A stretch of DNA of 64,000 nucleotides from Chloroflexota bacterium (GTDB lineage: Bacteria > Chloroflexota > Anaerolineae > Aggregatilineales > Phototrophicaceae): the NCBI GenBank assembly GCA_016223085.1, contig JACRPS010000029.1:124001-188000 (forward strand), given 5' to 3'. Numbering within the stretch: position 1 is the stretch's first letter; every line of letters starts with the position of its first letter. A program made the translations under genes and the position numbers. Below, piece after piece: positions 3,043 to 48,402 of this stretch. The notes under the pieces were generated by a model, which saw only the letters and a list, made by a program, of their open reading frames with translations, searched no databases and was not told the DNA's origin.

Positions 3043-3211
3043 AGCTCTTTCTCCTGTTAAATCACAAAGTCACATCGGCACTGATTGTACTGAATCAATG
3101 CAAAAAGCGCGTTGGTACGGCTGAGGTCGGGACTGAATTCCTATACCTCAACGCTACATCGTTTACGATAGTCCAGAAGAAAGAGGAATTGCCGGACGGC
3201 TGGCCTACGCT

Positions 3212-4063
3212 TCAGTTACGGGTGAGCATCCGCTCCGTCAGGCGCATCGCGCCCCACGTCAGCAGCAGCGGCAGGACCACCGGCAGCACGAATTCGACCA
3301 CGAAATGCAGCGGCCAGGTCATCGGAATGAGGCGCATCAGGTTGAGCAGCACGAAGTACGAGACGCCGAGGAAGGCGGTGGTGATGACCGCCGTCGAGCG
3401 CACCGGGAAGGCCGCGCCCGCCGCCTGTCCGATAGCGGCGATCATAAATGGCTCCAGCGCCAGCCGCAGCAGCGACACGATCAGTCCCAGCGCCATTGCC
3501 ACCCGCGCCAGCAAGGGGTAATCATCCAGAGGGTACAGGGTGGCGTACAGCGAAATCAGCAGCGGCATACTCAGCACCGCGACCGCGATCATCAGCAGGC
3601 CGAGGTTCTCCAACTGTCGCCAGATCGAGGCCGCCATTTTGCTGGCGAGGATGGATTGCAGGCTGATCGGCGTGGCGCGCACCAGGTCGAAGGTGCTTTT
3701 GCGGAGTTCGTCCACGATGGACAGCGCCGCCGCCGTGCCGATGGCAAACAGGATGTGCCCGTACAGATACAGCGCGATGGGGAACAGCAGCAGCGCGGCG
3801 GTGATCGTCGGCAGCGCCAGGTCGAACAGGAACGGCCACAGCAGCGACAGCGCCACCAGCCCGACCTGCACGATGACCAGCTTCACCAGCACGCTGACTT
3901 CCGGCAGGATGGTTTTCCAGTACATGCCCAACTGGCGGCGGATGATGGGGTTGGTGCGGCGCGCCCAGGCCGGCAGGCGCTGGTCGAGTTCCGGGGAGTG
4001 GTACTTCGCCGGCAGATGAATCACGCTGATGTCGGTTTTGGCCTGTTCCACATGCTTATCCAC
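3212..4063 (-). CDS. Multi-pass membrane protein, ABC-2 permease-like
   Basis: A 283-residue protein with a hydrophilic N-terminus of about 60 residues and about six hydrophobic segments. The stretch DELRKSTFDLVRATPISLQ followed by ILASKMAA resembles the cytoplasmic loop of ABC-2 type permeases, and a similar loop (TWTPLILTGVSARRILLGKW) occurs in the gene at 14929. No ATPase subunit is nearby, so a transporter role is inferred only. It is divergent from the hydrolase gene across a 112-bp gap that probably holds promoters for both. Confidence 0.6.
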   Translation of the reverse strand: MDKHVEQAKTDISVIHLPAKYHSPELDQRLPAWARRTNPIIRRQLGMYWKTILPEVSVLVKLVIVQVGLVALSLLWPFLFDLALPTITAALLLFPIALYLYGHILFAIGTAAALSIVDELRKSTFDLVRATPISLQSILASKMAASIWRQLENLGLLMIAVAVLSMPLLISLYATLYPLDDYPLLARVAMALGLIVSLLRLALEPFMIAAIGQAAGAAFPVRSTAVITTAFLGVSYFVLLNLMRLIPMTWPLHFVVEFVLPVVLPLLLTWGAMRLTERMLTRN

Positions 4064-43668: not shown

Positions 43669-44136
43669 ATGTCAACCTGGTGGGGATCACGGAGCAACGT
43701 CACCCCGCGCCTGCGCCTGGAAGTGGAGGCCATGCGAGCTGCCTTTGACGATACGTTCAAGCTGGTTGTCCCGCAGTACGGCCTGCTGTACTGGGAAGGC
43801 GAGGTGGAGATCAACCTGGCGACGCTGGATACCCGCAACCATAAGTTGAAGATCGTTTATCCCAACGAATATCCCAACCGCCCGGCGGAAGCCTATGTGC
43901 TGAGGCCGCGCATTTACAGCGAAAAGCACCAGTACGAAGACGGCCAGTTATGCCTGTTTAACCCGAAGGACGGGGAACAGTACGGCTGGAATCCAAGCCG
44001 GTCAACGGCGGTGACGGTGGCGGGCTGGGCGATTCAGTGGATTTACGCCTATTACACCTGGCGGGCGACCGGCGAATGGCCCGGCATCGAGGAACGGGTG
44101 GACCCGAACACGCCGCTGCCGCCGCGCCGCCGATGA
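43669..44136 (+). CDS. E2-like (UBC-fold) ubiquitin-conjugating protein
   Basis: A 155-residue bacterial E2-like protein. LKIVYPNEYPNRPAEAYVL corresponds to the fourth strand and Pro-rich loop of the UBC fold. EKHQYEDGQLCLFNP holds His87 and the candidate catalytic Cys95, matching the H..(N)..GxxCL pattern of E2 enzymes. The C-terminal helix has WAIQWIYAYYTWRATGEWPG, as in other bacterial E2 families. It should carry a modifier as a thioester passed from an E1. GAGGAG precedes the ATG. It is coupled by ATGA to the JAB gene and heads the operon. Confidence 0.85.
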   Translation: MSTWWGSRSNVTPRLRLEVEAMRAAFDDTFKLVVPQYGLLYWEGEVEINLATLDTRNHKLKIVYPNEYPNRPAEAYVLRPRIYSEKHQYEDGQLCLFNPKDGEQYGWNPSRSTAVTVAGWAIQWIYAYYTWRATGEWPGIEERVDPNTPLPPRRR

Positions 44137-45296
44137 AAGGTATCGCAGCCATGATAACCGGTCGCTTGAACGCCCGGCGGCAGCCGCACATCAGCGTACC
44201 CAATCTGGTCATCGCGCAGCGCGTGCTGGACAAGATGGCCGCCGCCGCCAGCCACTACATCGCCGACGAAACCGGCGAAGCGATGGTGGGGCTGGTGGTG
44301 CCGGGGACGCACACCAACGGCGTCCCGACGCTGTACGTGCTGGACACGATTGCGCCGGACGACAGCGCCGTGCGCCAGCTTCACACCTTCCAGCAGGGGG
44401 ACGAGCGCCAGGACGAACTGATCTGGTGGCTGCAGGAGAACTGGCGCTTCGGGCGGGAGAAACACACGGGCGCCGACGGCAAACCGCTGGCGGCCAAGTG
44501 GGACGTGCCGCTGCGCTACCTGGGCGACTGGCACAAGCAGCCCGGTTTTATGATCCAGCCCAGCCAGGGCGACCTGATGACCGCCAAAAACTGGATCGCC
44601 GACCCGGCCAACGGCATGGACTTTTTACTGGCGCCGATTGTGACGCTGGGACACCCGGCGACGACCGAGAGCCACCCGGCGGGCGCAAATTACGTCACCA
44701 TCCCGCAGGGGGATGACACCTGTATGCGGGTGGATTTCTGGTATCTGGATGGACACAGCCGGGACTTTATGCCGATTGTGCCGGCGGTGTACCCCAGCGA
44801 GCAGCTTCCGGCGCTGGTGGCGTACCCCTGGCATCTGGCGAAGGAAGACCGCTTCCGCGCCGAATACAGCCTGCTGGAAAAAGATGGCCTGTTCACATCG
44901 CTGGTGCTGTGGGAAGCCAGCGGCAGCCTGCCGCTGGAAATCTGCCTGCTGACGGCGCGGCTGGGCTGGAAGAAGGTGCTGATTCTGGTCACGCCGAGCG
45001 ATTACCCGGCGTCGCCGCCAACGGCGCGCACCGCGCCGTTTGTGGAGATGAAGCCGGAAGATGATATTTACACCGTGTTTGAGTCGCTGTGGGCCGATTC
45101 CGAACCCGTGCCTGACCCGCCCGATTGGACGTGGACGGAAGGCCGCTTCCTGCTGGATTACGTCTACGCGCTGGAAGCGGCGCTGGACCTGCGTGAGGAA
45201 GCGCCGGTGGCCGGGGGTGGCGGTCCAGTGAGTAATGGCGACGGTGATGCGGCAGAGGACAGTCAAAGCACCGCAAATACGGATGCTTCGCCGTAG
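44133..45296 (+). CDS. JAB/JAMM protease-like protein with C-terminal E2/RWD-like domain
   Basis: A 387-residue protein. Residues about 22-180 are a JAB/MPN domain: the acid Glu46 in ADETGEAMVGL and the zinc motif at 134-147, where GDWHKQPGF then PSQGD gives His134, Gln136, Ser144 and Asp147. Spacing equals H-x-H-x7-S-x2-D, but Gln136 replaces the second His. Residues about 195-320 form a second domain; KVLILVTPSDYPASPP resembles the strand and Pro-loop of UBC/RWD folds, without a catalytic Cys. A Gly/Ser/Asp-rich tail follows. JAB proteins in such operons cut the modifier from targets or mature it. ATG 44151 is an alternative start with a better GAAAGG. The TAG stop lies in a palindrome. Confidence 0.8.
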   Translation: MKGIAAMITGRLNARRQPHISVPNLVIAQRVLDKMAAAASHYIADETGEAMVGLVVPGTHTNGVPTLYVLDTIAPDDSAVRQLHTFQQGDERQDELIWWLQENWRFGREKHTGADGKPLAAKWDVPLRYLGDWHKQPGFMIQPSQGDLMTAKNWIADPANGMDFLLAPIVTLGHPATTESHPAGANYVTIPQGDDTCMRVDFWYLDGHSRDFMPIVPAVYPSEQLPALVAYPWHLAKEDRFRAEYSLLEKDGLFTSLVLWEASGSLPLEICLLTARLGWKKVLILVTPSDYPASPPTARTAPFVEMKPEDDIYTVFESLWADSEPVPDPPDWTWTEGRFLLDYVYALEAALDLREEAPVAGGGGPVSNGDGDAAEDSQSTANTDASP

Positions 45297-45320
45297 GGAC
45301 ACGATATATCGTGTCCCTAC
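45293..45320. repeat. Family C palindrome inside the conjugation operon
   Basis: A perfect palindrome, identical to copy 1. It supplies the TAG stop of the JAB gene at 45294-45296 and lies 36 bp before the E1-like start. Confidence 0.9.
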
Positions 45321-45355
45321 ACACCGTTTCGCGGCATCTGGAAGGACACAACATC

Positions 45356-46261
45356 ATGACGTGGGATCGGGTGGAACGGCTGATCGGCGCGGACAACCTG
45401 GCGCGGCTGGCACAGAAGCGCGTTGGCATCATCGGGCTGGGGTCAGGCGGCGGGTTTGTCGCCCTGAGTCTGGCGATGAGCGGCGTCGGCCAGTTCGTGC
45501 TGGTGGACGACGACACGGTGGAACACGGCAACATCGTGCGCCACGTAGCCGACAGCCGGTACGTCGGCCAGCCGAAAGTCGAAGCGGTGGCCGACCTGAT
45601 TCGCCAGCGCCACCCGGCGGCGCAGGTGGAAACGCGGCAGGGACGGATTGAGCAGCACATGGACGTGCTCGACCAGGTGGACGTGCTGATCGTCGGCGTG
45701 GACGGCGAAAACAGCAAATACGTCATCAATCAGGCCTGTTTGCAGCGTGGACTGACGGCGGTGTACGCCGGTGTGTACGAACGCGGCGAGGGCGGCGACG
45801 TGGTGGTGATTCGCCCGTACAATGGGCCGTGTTACGCCTGCTGGGCGGCGGAACTGCGCGAAGGGCTGGCGGCGAACGAGAATCAAGCCTCGAAGGACCT
45901 GGATTATGGTATGATTGGGCCAGAAGGCACGCTGGAAGCTGAGCCGGGATTGTGGCTGCACGTCGTGCGGGTGGCCTCGGTGCAGGCTGACCTGGCGCTG
46001 AACGAACTGCTGCAGGGGACGGCGGCGTATAAAACGATGCCCGCCAATACCGTCATCCTGGCGAACACGGCGCTGGAAATCCTGAACGGTGAAATCAGCC
46101 TGCCGTATACCGCCGTGTGGGTGAACATCCCGCGCGACCCGCACTGTCTGGTCTGCGGTGACGCGCTGCGGAACGAGCTGGCGGCAGAGGAGCAGGCTGT
46201 CTCGCTGGACGATCTGGCGCAGTCCACCGGCGTGGCGCTGGAAGAAGAAGCAGGAGAATAG
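45356..46261 (+). CDS. E1/ThiF-like adenylyltransferase
   Basis: A 301-residue activating enzyme. KRVGIIGLGSGGGFVALSLA is the nucleotide-binding loop; FVLVDDDTVEHGNIVRHV has the Asp and the Asn59/Arg62 that bind ATP in ThiF/E1 proteins. Two Cys pairs, CYAC (159, 162) and CLVC (264, 267), fit the structural zinc site. Cys128 in NQACLQRG is a further candidate reactive Cys. It should adenylate the C-terminus of a modifier and pass it to the E2. ATG 45356 follows GGAAGGA; GTG 45311, inside the palindrome, is a less likely start. The next gene starts 9 bp later. Confidence 0.87.
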   Translation: MTWDRVERLIGADNLARLAQKRVGIIGLGSGGGFVALSLAMSGVGQFVLVDDDTVEHGNIVRHVADSRYVGQPKVEAVADLIRQRHPAAQVETRQGRIEQHMDVLDQVDVLIVGVDGENSKYVINQACLQRGLTAVYAGVYERGEGGDVVVIRPYNGPCYACWAAELREGLAANENQASKDLDYGMIGPEGTLEAEPGLWLHVVRVASVQADLALNELLQGTAAYKTMPANTVILANTALEILNGEISLPYTAVWVNIPRDPHCLVCGDALRNELAAEEQAVSLDDLAQSTGVALEEEAGE

Positions 46262-46269
46262 TCGGTCCT

Positions 46270-46596
46270 ATGGAAGATCAGAACAACCGGCCCACAGTGG
46301 AACCCACAAACGAACCGGCGGCGACGAACCCACCGGAAACGCCGGTCAACGGCCAGACAGCAGCGCCGCCACCGCCGCCCCCGGCGAACGTGCCGGAAGA
46401 CGACCGCATGAACGAACGGCTGGAACGGCTGGGCGGCGAACCGGCCCCGGCGATCACGCCGGAGGAATTCGCCCGGCTGCAGCGCGCCGGTCAGGTGCAT
46501 ATTGACGCACAGGGGCGCGTCCGCGCCGCGCGGCGCAGCGACGCGGAAGCCGGTGTGTCGCTGAAGAAACGCCGGGCGTGGTATGAGCGCCAGTGA
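46270..46596 (+). CDS. 108-residue Pro-rich, probably disordered protein
   Basis: No family was recognised. Residues 1-45 are Asn/Pro/Thr/Ala-rich with a run of Pro (APPPPPPANVP). Residues 46-100 look helical and charged (DDRMNERLERLGGEPAP, EEFARLQRAGQVHID). The chain ends KKRRAWYERQ, with a C-terminal Gln and no Gly-Gly end. There is no beta-grasp pattern, so it is not an ordinary ubiquitin-like protein. Position between E1 and methyltransferase, with a 14-bp overlap with the latter, suggests an adaptor, substrate or unusual modifier. Confidence 0.7.
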   Translation: MEDQNNRPTVEPTNEPAATNPPETPVNGQTAAPPPPPPANVPEDDRMNERLERLGGEPAPAITPEEFARLQRAGQVHIDAQGRVRAARRSDAEAGVSLKKRRAWYERQ

Positions 46597-47764
46597 GGGT
46601 TCCGAACTCCGCAAGGCGCTGGTAGACGCCTTAAAACGCAAGGGCGACCTCGACGATCCCGCGATTGAGGCCGCCCTTTTAGCCATTCCCCGGCACTTCT
46701 TCCTGCCGGACGAACCGCTGGAACGCGCCTATGCCGACGAAGCCGTGCCGGTCAAACGCGACAGCGACGGCATGGTGCTGGCATCGGCCAGCCAGCCGAG
46801 CATGATCGTGCTGATGCTCCAGCAGCTTCAACTGCGCCCCGGCGACAACGTGCTGGAGATCGGCGCGGGCACGGGGTATAACGCCGCGATCATGCAGCAC
46901 ATCATCGGCAGCAGCGGCACGGTCACGTCCATCGAACTCGACCCGCAGGTTGCCAAGCAGGCGCGGATTAATTTGCAGCACGCCGGCATGGGCGAGGTGA
47001 ACATCGTCGAAGCCGACGGCGCGATGGGCTACCCGGTGCGGGCGCAGTACGACCGCATCATCGCGACCGTCGCCGTGTGGGACATCCCGCCGGCATGGGT
47101 AAGGCAGCTCAAGTCGAACGGCATCCTGGTCGCGCCGGTGGGCGGGGCGGCCCAGTACAGCGCCGCGTTTAAGTTCGAGCCGGATGACAGCCTGTACAGC
47201 CCGGTGAACATCCCGTGCCGGTTTATCGCGCTGCGCGGCATTGCCGCCGGGCCGACCATCCTCCAGCGCATCAACGCGACCGGCCTGATTCTGGTGTCGG
47301 ATCACATCAGCCAGCTTGACCCGGCGGCCACCCACATGCTGCTGTCCGAAGACGAGGAACTGAACTACCTGGGCGCGGCGCTGTCGCCGGGGGAATACTG
47401 GCAGGGGTTTTTGCCGTACCTGGAACTGAACACGCCGGAGGATTACCTGTTCGCCAGCTACGTGGTGGCCGACAACCAGCAGGCCTACGGGCTGGAAGGG
47501 ACCGGCTTCGCGCTCGTCAGCCCCGGCAGCGCGTGTTTTGTGCCGTTCCAGGGGCAGGGTGATGTTCACTGTTACGGCGGCGCGGATGCGTTCATGGCGC
47601 TGCGCGAGGTGCTGGGCGCCTGGGAAGCCGCCGGGCGACCGGGCAGCGACCGGCTGCGGATGCGGCTGCTGCCGAAGAAGCCGGGACGAACCGCGCCCCC
47701 CGGCGGTAAAGTCTACTCCCGCCTGTACCACGACCTGATGATGTGGCTGGACACACGCGCATGA
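46583..47764 (+). CDS. Protein-L-isoaspartate methyltransferase-like protein, extended
   Basis: A 393-residue protein. Residues about 5-215 match PCMT: IPRHFFLPDEPLERAYADEA, the segment ASASQPSMIVLMLQQLQL, and the SAM-binding VLEIGAGTGYNAAIMQHI. PCMT methylates isoaspartyl residues in aged proteins. Residues from about 216 form an extension of roughly 175 residues not found in the short repair enzyme, with no recognised motif. Its place in a conjugation operon suggests quality control or modification of targets. It overlaps both neighbours. Confidence 0.87.
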   Translation: MSASEGSELRKALVDALKRKGDLDDPAIEAALLAIPRHFFLPDEPLERAYADEAVPVKRDSDGMVLASASQPSMIVLMLQQLQLRPGDNVLEIGAGTGYNAAIMQHIIGSSGTVTSIELDPQVAKQARINLQHAGMGEVNIVEADGAMGYPVRAQYDRIIATVAVWDIPPAWVRQLKSNGILVAPVGGAAQYSAAFKFEPDDSLYSPVNIPCRFIALRGIAAGPTILQRINATGLILVSDHISQLDPAATHMLLSEDEELNYLGAALSPGEYWQGFLPYLELNTPEDYLFASYVVADNQQAYGLEGTGFALVSPGSACFVPFQGQGDVHCYGGADAFMALREVLGAWEAAGRPGSDRLRMRLLPKKPGRTAPPGGKVYSRLYHDLMMWLDTRA

Positions 47765-48402
47765 GCATCACGCTGGCCCAACTCCGCGCGGCAGTGGAAC
47801 TGCCGGAGTTTGACGCACAGGCGGCGCAGCTAGCGATGGCGCCACACAAGCCGCGGATTCGCCCGGAAACCGGCGCGCGGCAGGCCGGCGTGCTCGTCCT
47901 CGTCTATCCCGAACTGGACGACCGGCTACAGCTGGTGCTGACGCGGCGCACCGATACGCTGCGCGGCCACAGCGGGCAGATCAGCTTCCCCGGCGGGCGG
48001 CGCGACCCGCAGGACGAGTCGTTTGCCGCGACGGCGCTGCGCGAAACCTGCGAAGAACTGGGCCTGTGCGAGCAAGACATTACGATCCTCGGCGCGCTGA
48101 CGCCGATTTACATCCCCCCCAGCAATTTTGAAGTGTTCCCGACGGTAGGCGCGCTGCCGCTGCCGCCGGTGTTCCACCCCAATCCCGCCGAAGTGGCAGA
48201 AGTGCTGCCTTTTCCGGTCGACAACCTGCTTGACCCGCGTTATAAATCAACCGAAGACTGGACGTTCCAGGGGATGGCGGTGCGCATCCCGTTTTACACC
48301 GTTGGCCCGCACAAGGTGTGGGGTGCGACGGCGATCATGCTGAGCGAACTGGAACACCGCCTGCGCCGCGTGGTCCTACCGACCGGCATCCCCAACCCGT
48401 AG
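47761..48402 (+). CDS. Nudix hydrolase, CoA-pyrophosphatase-like
   Basis: A 213-residue protein. Residues 68-102 carry TLRGHSGQISFPGG followed by the Nudix box ending TALRETCEELGL, a combination typical of the NudL/CoA diphosphatase group. LTPIYIPPSNFEVFPTVG follows, also usual for that group. It should hydrolyse a nucleoside diphosphate linked to another group; substrate not proven. ATGA overlap with the methyltransferase places it at the end of the conjugation operon. The start at 47761 is favoured over 47743 by the overlap. Confidence 0.87.
   Translation: MSITLAQLRAAVELPEFDAQAAQLAMAPHKPRIRPETGARQAGVLVLVYPELDDRLQLVLTRRTDTLRGHSGQISFPGGRRDPQDESFAATALRETCEELGLCEQDITILGALTPIYIPPSNFEVFPTVGALPLPPVFHPNPAEVAEVLPFPVDNLLDPRYKSTEDWTFQGMAVRIPFYTVGPHKVWGATAIMLSELEHRLRRVVLPTGIPNP

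What the first reader, a model, noticed from the sequence alone, without database searches (positions are those of the whole stretch)
43669..48402. Ubiquitin-like conjugation operon: E2, JAB, E1, Pro-rich protein, PCMT, Nudix
Seen: six plus-strand genes overlapping or separated by at most 60 bp. UBC-fold protein with Cys95, JAMM-type protein, ThiF-type E1 with ATP-binding and CxxC pairs, 108-residue Pro-rich protein, isoaspartate-methyltransferase-like protein and Nudix hydrolase. Known: E2/JAB/E1 operons occur as Bil, Bub and type II CBASS in bacteria. Inference: the methyltransferase and Nudix genes are unusual partners, and no beta-grasp modifier is visible, so this may be an undescribed variant, perhaps for antiphage defence or protein quality control.
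Basis: partly seen in the sequence, partly recalled or inferred. Interest (0 to 1): 0.85.

Follow-up and report, generated by a model that had tools for sequence, protein, structure and literature searches.

The report
Ubiquitin-like operon with tail-tagged partner
A group of Chloroflexota bacteria carries, as a stable part of its chromosome, a ubiquitin-like enzyme set next to a small floppy protein whose nearly unchanging end also appears on phage shell proteins, which hints at a protein-tagging or protein-cutting pathway that phages exploit.

Summary
The six genes are real. The conserved core is E2 - JAMM/MPN - E1: 76 of 80 related loci keep that order on one strand, 3 more are cut by contig ends. 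It looks like vertically inherited core genome, not a mobile defence island: E2 in 36 of 37 sampled members of the order, and only six weak E2-like matches in the other 359 sampled genomes of the class. Three features separate it from Bil and type II CBASS. The E1 is one ThiF domain without a conserved crossover Cys. The MPN protein keeps E, H, S and D, but the second His of H-x-H is Gln in 77 of 80 rows. The Pro-rich partner P4 is predicted not to be a beta-grasp. P4 has a variable N-part and a tail (...SLxKRRAWY), median 91% identical to the window's. P4 tracks E2 (34 of 36 E2-positive genomes), even where its gene has moved away. Similar tails occur at the N-termini of phage scaffold and major head proteins and in an Rhs-like protein, resembling the S. 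aureus Prp/L27/phage 80alpha case. Best reading: the trio acts on the P4 tail, as a non-beta-grasp modifier or processed substrate, in a housekeeping role. No biochemistry was done.

The parts
43669..44136 (+). E2 / UBC-fold protein, 155 aa; Cys95 and His87 (HQYEDGQLCLF) invariant
   Evidence: PADLOC E2 4.5e-17; profile to PDB UBE2L3 4.2e-6; H87 and C95 in 81 of 81 rows
44133..45296 (+). JAMM/MPN domain (about residues 22-231) plus C-terminal alpha-beta part with YPxxPP (233-351, possibly RWD/E2-like, not shown); second metal His replaced by Gln136; relatives start at 44151
   Evidence: AlphaFold pLDDT 86.6; Foldseek 1.1e-7 BRISC; VIA Z 15.3 CfBRCC36, 14.5 Caldiarchaeum Rpn11, 12.6 Cap3; motif
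45356..46261 (+). E1 / ThiF-type adenylating enzyme, 301 aa; glycine loop, R62, K74, D116 and two CxxC invariant; no conserved crossover Cys
   Evidence: Pfam ThiF 7.4e-35; PDB MccB 6.2e-18, ThiF 1.1e-16, MoeB 1.5e-16, UBA5 1.7e-16
46270..46596 (+). P4, 108 aa: variable Pro-rich N-part, near-invariant C-part
   Evidence: no Pfam/NCBIfam/PADLOC match up to E 1; residues 50-105 median 91% identical to the window, residues 1-49 34% (34 loci); low-confidence model without beta-grasp
46513..46584 (+). P4 tail module GRVRAARRSDAEAGVSLKKRRAWY (residues 82-105); the residues after it vary between species
   Evidence: similar stretches in phage head proteins and an Rhs-like protein
46583..47764 (+). 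PCMT-like methyltransferase with C-terminal extension (FxLD-like), 393 aa; goes with P4 in part of the loci
47761..48402 (+). Nudix hydrolase (CoA-pyrophosphatase-like), 213 aa; goes with P4

Best explanation
A housekeeping E1-E2-JAMM pathway of one order of Anaerolineae (name inferred from record titles of relatives) whose client is the C-terminal tail of P4. Shown: the trio is a conserved operon; E2 keeps its Cys/His; E1 keeps its ATP-binding residues; the MPN fold is predicted, with an altered (HxQ) metal site; P4 has a near-invariant tail ending in ...KRRAWY, then 0-22 varying residues; P4 and E2 occur in the same genomes; similar tails sit on phage head proteins and an Rhs-like protein. 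Inferred: the MPN protein (or another host protease) trims P4 just after the module; E1 adenylates the exposed C-terminus; E2 Cys95 takes it over directly (no E1 thioester Cys) and passes it to target proteins, so P4 would be a disordered modifier that is not a beta-grasp. Phages that place the module on scaffold and head proteins would exploit the same recognition step, as phage 80alpha uses the host protease Prp. PCMT and Nudix are accessory.
For: Operon order in 76 of 80 loci. E2 in 36 of 37 and P4 in 34 of 37 sampled order members; in the other 359 genomes of the class sample P4 in none, E2 only as six weak matches, two of which (G080, G120) I opened and found next to nucleotidyltransferase-like genes. 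The two E2-positive genomes without P4 (G572, G584) have the E2 13.4 and 11.3 kb from the contig end on the side where eight genomes of their genus carry P4 12-15 kb away: G584 is thereby explained, G572 probably. P4 is kept where its gene has left the trio. P4 tail in 132 of 151 genomes of the order. Catalytic residues. Tail boundary: 58 distinct P4 ends, 57 with 1-22 residues after WY, 1 with none. Tail in non-P4 proteins with a profile made only from P4: E 2.6e-9, 8.1e-8, 4.3e-6. Held-out G754: two adjacent head genes, E 4.5e-5 and 0.0015, against 0.0225 as the best for one column-shuffled profile in the same 151 genomes. Precedent for E1/E2/JAB acting on the C-end of a non-beta-grasp protein: cGAS in type II CBASS (PMC10097602, passages).
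Against: P4's last residues vary, while in the CBASS precedent the last residue is fixed (Gly/Ala); one P4 ends exactly at WY. In the window P4's end overlaps the next start codon, which alone could make the extension variable. The MPN metal site lacks one His, so it may be inactive. Co-occurrence is within one order, hence few independent events; E2 was sought in only one genome (G557) of the P4-less family f86. No conjugate, cleavage or binding was measured. The module is short: the mixed profile also gave 2.9e-5 to an unrelated enzyme family outside the order.
Confidence: 0.4

Rival explanations
1. The modifier is an ordinary beta-grasp protein encoded elsewhere (MoaD/ThiS type); P4 is an adaptor, E3-like factor or main target.
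For: Four ThiS/MoaD-family proteins over the cut-off in this genome, one ending in Gly-Gly; E1 scores about equally against ThiF, MoeB and UBA5.
Against: None of the four is on the window's contig. By eye two lie next to aldehyde ferredoxin oxidoreductase-like genes, one next to a MoaC-like gene, one about 1.5 kb from a MoeB-like gene, which suits cofactor synthesis. YukD search under the cut-off. I noticed no small beta-grasp among recurrent neighbours of the trio, but did not search the loci with beta-grasp profiles.
Confidence: 0.25
2. The tail module is the recognition site of a separate housekeeping protease (Prp-like logic); P4 is one client and sits by the trio for another reason.
For: Same layout as Prp with L27, 80alpha scaffold and capsid (PMC5744158, passages): N-terminal in head proteins, free sequence after the site; in the Rhs-like protein it lies just before the C-terminal domain.
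Against: No Prp in the genome; L27 starts MAHKKGG without extension. P4 and the trio share operon and phyletic range.
Confidence: 0.2
3. An antiphage system of the Bil/Bub/CBASS kind.
For: E2 and JAB match PADLOC models of these systems; a P4-like tail is found on phage head proteins.
Against: Near-universal in the sampled order, stable operon; seven flanking window genes give no defence family beyond a weak methyltransferase-type match; no CD-NTase or effector noticed among recurrent neighbours.
Confidence: 0.08
4. A peptide-maturation (RiPP-like) cluster: MccB/ThiF-like E1 and FxLD-type methyltransferase act on a P4-derived peptide.
For: Best E1 match in PDB is MccB; methyltransferase fits TIGR04364 over its length.
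Against: Below that model's cut-off; the varying end that could be a core is 1-3 residues in 46 of 58 P4s; E2 and MPN have no place in it; PCMT is missing from many loci.
Confidence: 0.04

Closest known systems
Type II CBASS Cap2/Cap3 (E1-E2 fusion, JAB, CD-NTase)
   Same: E1, E2 and JAB act on the C-terminus of a protein that is not a beta-grasp (PMC10097602, passages); MPN model matches Cap3 with Z 12.6
   Different: No CD-NTase or effector found beside it; E1 and E2 are separate; E1 lacks the active Cys; MPN has HxQ; P4 does not end in a fixed Gly/Ala; core chromosome rather than defence island
Bil (BilA-D)
   Same: E1, E2, JAB in one operon
   Different: BilA has two beta-grasp domains, BilD an inactive plus active adenylation domain and a Cys domain, BilB a CEHH motif (PMC11354881, passages); not seen here
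Iyer et al. 2006 operon types 6a-6e (PMC1779556)
   Same: Bacterial operons of E2-like, E1-like and JAB genes, some with RWD-like inactive E2 domains
   Different: 6d/6e carry beta-grasp proteins; the trio with P4 is not among the rows that I saw (passages)
   Same: E2 about 40% identical, an E1 that also lacks the crossover Cys, JAB proteins
   Different: JABs keep HxH; clusters also hold genes that I read as SPFH-like, VWA, TM and (L090) FtsK/HerA-like; no P4 tail seen by eye
Prp protease with L27 and phage 80alpha head proteins
   Same: One short motif shared by a host housekeeping protein and phage scaffold and capsid N-termini
   Different: Motif and host protein differ and Prp is absent; in P4 the module is C-terminal
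Pup / UBact
   Same: Small, disordered, conserved C-end
   Different: Pup-type ends in Gly-Gly-Gln/Glu and needs a ligase of another family (recalled); P4 ends ...KRRAWY plus variable residues

Membership tests
E2 (UBC) fold | catalytic Cys with upstream His in HxxxxGxLCL-type motif | tested here: met
   C95 and H87 in 81 of 81 rows; PADLOC 4.5e-17; fold itself not modelled
E1 / ThiF family | ATP-binding ThiF domain | tested here: met
   Pfam 120.6 bits, cut-off 28.1
E1 that forms a thioester | crossover catalytic Cys | tested here: not met
   Place of the Cys in the genome's own MoeB-like protein reads LDYGM here; LDYG is invariant in 37 rows; Cys128, at another place, is in 67 of 75 rows
JAMM/MPN+ metalloprotease | MPN fold | tested here: met
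   Z 12.6-15.3 in the 50 rows shown
JAMM/MPN+ metalloprotease | E - HxH - S - D motif | tested here: not met
   E, first H, S, D conserved; second H is Gln in 77 of 80 rows, His in L081, L084, L089
RWD / inactive E2 (C-terminal part of the MPN protein) | profile or fold match | tested here: inconclusive
   predicted helix, strands, helix order; hhalign to E2 family 6%; no RWD or E2 match in Pfam; not folded alone
Bil | two-domain beta-grasp BilA in the operon | tested here: not met
   P4, 108 aa with about 55 conserved, is the only small protein of the operon; its model has no beta-grasp but pTM is only 0.30
Bil | BilB CEHH motif (Cys, +6 Glu, +8 His, +13 His) | tested here: not met
   C95, D101, E103, N108 (motif)
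Type II CBASS | CD-NTase next to E1/E2/JAB | tested here: not met
   none among seven flanking window genes (PADLOC, Pfam); none noticed among recurrent neighbours of the loci, by eye only
Bub | beta-grasp Ubl and oxyester-forming E1 | not testable with these tools
   a defining paper is not held; features recalled
FxLD methyltransferase TIGR04364 | curated score of 320 bits | tested here: not met
   262.5 bits
Prp-type processing system | Prp protease (PF04327) | tested here: not met
   0 of 1 genome (97.85% complete); the search rings in 6 of 14 control genomes

The most novel reading that the evidence does not exclude
A core bacterial conjugation pathway with a disordered modifier that is not a beta-grasp. 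P4 is exposed at ...KRRAWY by a Gln-substituted MPN enzyme, activated by a Cys-less E1, carried by an E2. Its tail has been copied onto scaffold, capsid and perhaps other head proteins by phages, and into an Rhs toxin-like protein, to be processed or ligated by the host.
Probability: 0.25. Interest if true: 0.95.

Novelty: new variant of a known kind. Interest (0 to 1): 0.78.

Why it matters
The bacterial E1/E2/JAB sets that I found in print are discussed as known or putative immune systems. A vertically inherited, near-universal one in an environmental order would be a case of housekeeping ubiquitin-like modification in bacteria, with a client that is not ubiquitin-like. The tail module gives a concrete, testable handle: the same 23 residues on a host protein, phage heads and an Rhs-like protein should meet the same enzyme.

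Tried and rejected
Considered and set aside: (1) a P4 beta-grasp fold: model shows helix 43-53, helix 64-72, hairpin 76-78/84-86, helix 98-106, mean pLDDT 67.8, pTM 0.30. (2) L27 as the processed host protein: it starts MAHKKGG. (3) Prp: not found. (4) YukD-type modifier: best E 0.93, under the cut-off. (5) RWD identity of the MPN protein's C-part: profile comparison 6%, Pfam gave one chance match in 10 members; left open. (6) PDB profile search with P4: only CodY, E 0.0087, judged chance; with the MPN alignment: E 0.13, chance.

Results against the module reading: a P4-tail peptide scan of IMG/VR found 138 pattern matches and no confirmed relative; the G590 scaffold-like protein has no relative in IMG/VR or INPHARED by the searches made. 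Of the 5 IMG/VR contigs matching the pattern (3 of them also), L152 and L153 (apparently the same phage) and L156 carry it near the N-terminus of a protein; L151 and L155 carry it in a short or antisense frame and were dropped. Weak P4-profile hits that I opened and judged chance or could not place: L146, L147, L149 (E 0.0019-0.0026); weak mixed-profile hits likewise: L158, L159. Nine further listed hits at E 0.004-0.026, those at E 0.0127 and weaker, and matches beyond the listing caps were not opened. Outside the order, the mixed profile has hits at E 0.05 or less in 52 of 359 genomes, best 2.9e-5; of the 7 that I opened, 5 are one enzyme family (URO-D-like by eye) with a partial match in mid-protein and 2 look non-coding. 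So E-values near 1e-5 from this short profile are not proof alone; the weight lies on the P4-only profile scores, N-terminal position and neighbouring head genes. The shuffled control was made for the mixed profile only, once. Rows of that profile include the G590, G771, G692 and G629 instances, so only G754 is held out. G754 itself shows no P4, in an assembly of 510 contigs. The Rhs-like reading of L145 and L124 is by eye; Pfam gave nothing.
Full report
What is there. The six genes at 43669-48402 exist as described; neighbours overlap by 4, are 59 and 8 bases apart, and overlap by 14 and 4. Library searches name the E2 (PADLOC 4.5e-17), the ThiF-type E1 (Pfam 7.4e-35), PCMT (2.9e-48) and Nudix (2.1e-12). 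They say nothing about the Pro-rich protein P4, and show the JAB-like protein only through weak PADLOC JAB models (best 2.9e-8). A predicted structure of the latter with a 39-row alignment (mean pLDDT 86.6) has an MPN domain: VIA-align Z 15.3 to CfBRCC36, 14.5 to a Caldiarchaeum Rpn11 homologue, 12.6 to Cap3. Its C-terminal part (233-351) has a helix, strands, helix order and a YPxxPP turn that suggest RWD/E2, but a profile comparison with the E2 family gave only 6% and Pfam no RWD or E2, so this stays open. Seven flanking window genes are MFS, phosphodiesterase/sulfatase, PfkB, TPR, a weak methyltransferase and two without a family; none is a defence gene beyond weak methyltransferase-type matches.

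Conservation. A scan of genome contigs (84,980 species) gave 91 relatives of the E2, of which the best 80 were kept, 71-93% identical; record titles are mostly Anaerolineae, Chloroflexi or Aggregatilineales, from which I take the taxonomy. In 76 of 80, E2, MPN and E1 follow each other on one strand; L010, L029 and L035 are cut by contig ends; L030 has a lone E2. P4 is in 34 of the 80 loci, PCMT in 28, Nudix in 24. In the 34 loci with all of E2, MPN, E1 and P4, median identity to the window is 81% for E2, 69% for E1, 60% for MPN, 54% for PCMT (28 loci), 60% for Nudix (23 loci), and 91% (minimum 61%) for P4 residues 50-105 against 34% for residues 1-49.

Distribution. In 396 sampled genomes of the class, the E2 profile finds 36 of the 37 members of the order at E below 1e-55; six others score between 5.7e-14 and 9.2e-8. 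I opened two of these six (L007 = G080, L008 = G120) and one E2-like gene from another class (L009): all three lie next to genes that I read as nucleotidyltransferases, as in CBASS. P4 is found in 34 of the same 37 and in 0 of the 359 others. The two E2-positive genomes without P4, G572 and G584, have the E2 13.4 and 11.3 kb from the contig end on the relevant side; in eight genomes of their genus P4 lies 12-15 kb away, so the contig end explains G584 and probably G572. In a larger sample of the order the P4 tail is in 132 of 151 genomes; the other 19 are all 9 of family f86, the one of f130, both of f131, and 7 scattered assemblies (three weak hits, G754, G678 and G682, counted as misses). 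In six loci where P4 has left the trio (L125, L126, L129, L130, L131, L133), a Nudix gene stays next to P4 in all six and a PCMT gene in four, read by eye. This looks like core genome, not a mobile island. Because it is one clade, the co-occurrence rests on few independent events, and E2 was sought in one f86 genome only.

Active sites. E2: His87 and Cys95 in 81 of 81 rows. E1: glycine-rich loop, Arg62, Lys74, Asp116 and both CxxC pairs are invariant, but the place of the crossover Cys reads LDYG; Cys128 is in 67 of 75 rows. The relatives L090 and L091 from another class also lack it. MPN: Glu49, His134, Ser144 and Asp147 are kept, while the second His of HxH is Gln in 77 of 80 rows; L081, L084 and L089 have His. 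The more distant JAB proteins of L090 and L091 keep HKHP. So the Gln is probably a derived change that has been kept, not decay.

P4. It is a short variable arm plus about 55 conserved residues. The model shows helix 64-72, hairpin 76-78/84-86 and helix 98-106, no beta-grasp, at low overall confidence (pTM 0.30). After ...KRRAWY come 0 to 22 residues with little in common: among 58 distinct ends in the held loci one has none, 13 have one, 20 two, 13 three. Gly (19) and Ala (13) are the most frequent next residues. In the window this stretch overlaps the start of the next gene, which may loosen it. A fixed boundary followed by free sequence is what a processing site would look like, but the zero-length case shows that processing cannot be needed everywhere.

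The tail elsewhere. A 32-column profile made from P4 tails only also hits, in 151 genomes of the order, an Rhs-like protein just before its C-terminal domain (G692/L145, E 2.6e-9), a frame among Rhs-like fragments (G629/L124, 8.1e-8), and the N-terminus of a prophage scaffold-like protein (G590/L123, 4.3e-6; PHROG head scaffolding 0.0024) (the Rhs readings are by eye, Pfam gave none). Two weak hits 1.1 kb apart (G771/L148, E about 0.01) are the N-termini of a scaffold-like protein (PHROG 2932, 0.0004) and a major head protein (PHROG 371, 1.1e-10). Degenerate-pattern scans of IMG/VR gave 5 contigs, three with the module near the N-terminus of a protein beside genes that I read as head genes: L156 (PHROG scaffolding 0.0007) and L152/L153, apparently one phage (no named family). 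A mixed profile then found a held-out case, G754: scaffold-like (PHROG 2932, 0.0066) and major head protein (1.3e-13) with E 0.0015 and 4.5e-5, and by eye a third gene of no named family with ...NLTRVRRWH. One column-shuffled profile in the same 151 genomes reached 0.0225 at best, 8 hits at 0.1 or less. Outside the order the mixed profile's best hit is 2.9e-5, to an enzyme family with a partial match in mid-protein, so short-profile E-values alone are not enough.

Known parallels. In S. aureus, scaffold and capsid of phage 80alpha and ribosomal protein L27 share an N-terminal motif cut by the host protease Prp (PMC5744158, passages; PMC9405229, listing and abstract start only). This genome has no Prp by search and a plain L27. 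In type II CBASS an E1-E2 fusion ligates cGAS through its C-terminal Gly/Ala although cGAS is not a beta-grasp (PMC10097602, passages). Bil has a two-domain beta-grasp modifier, an E1 with a Cys domain and an E2 with CEHH (PMC11354881, passages); none fits. [quoted passage not shown] a defining paper is not held. Iyer et al. 2006 (PMC1779556, passages) list operons 6a-6e; none that I saw has this set. Paper searches showed me no description of this operon, in listings and the passages named; the library holds open-licence papers only.

Mechanism. I put 0.4 on the trio acting on the P4 tail. The modifier version (AMP-P4, P4~E2, ligation) is the bolder half; plain processing is the milder one. 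The main rivals are a MoaD/ThiS modifier encoded elsewhere (four such proteins) and an unrelated protease that reads the module. Antiphage defence fits the distribution poorly.

Noticed in passing
L123:2716-3417, L148:2531-3238 and 1094-2077, L157:2068-2790, 630-1619 and 3048-3290, L152:1273-1938, L156:429-1118: Phage scaffold-like, major head and neighbouring genes with a P4-tail-like module at the N-terminus; L148 and L157 carry it on two or three genes at once.
   Followed up: partly
L145:1438-2571; L124:3069-3575: Module inside an Rhs-like protein (by eye) just before its C-terminal, toxin-like domain, and in a frame among Rhs-like fragments; suggests a release or recognition site.
   Followed up: partly
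   Followed up: partly
L007, L008, L009: E2-like genes beside nucleotidyltransferase-like genes, as in short CBASS operons.
   Followed up: no
41 of 81 stretches (80 loci plus window, not in the window), e.g. L038:5724-9626, L059:6706-10726: Genes read by eye as an iron(III)-type ABC transporter flank the trio, upstream or downstream.
   Followed up: no
34 of 81 stretches, none of them with P4 in reach, e.g. L038:12741-13292: A 183-aa unknown protein on the opposite strand right after the E1.
   Followed up: no
L030:9794-10468: E2 82% identical but with no MPN or E1 found beside it on 20 kb.
   Followed up: no
window 46583-47764: Methyltransferase fits the FxLD model over its length (262.5 of 320 bits).
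   Followed up: partly
L025: Record titled Bacteroidetes carries this operon at 83% E2 identity; probably a mislabelled bin.
   Followed up: no
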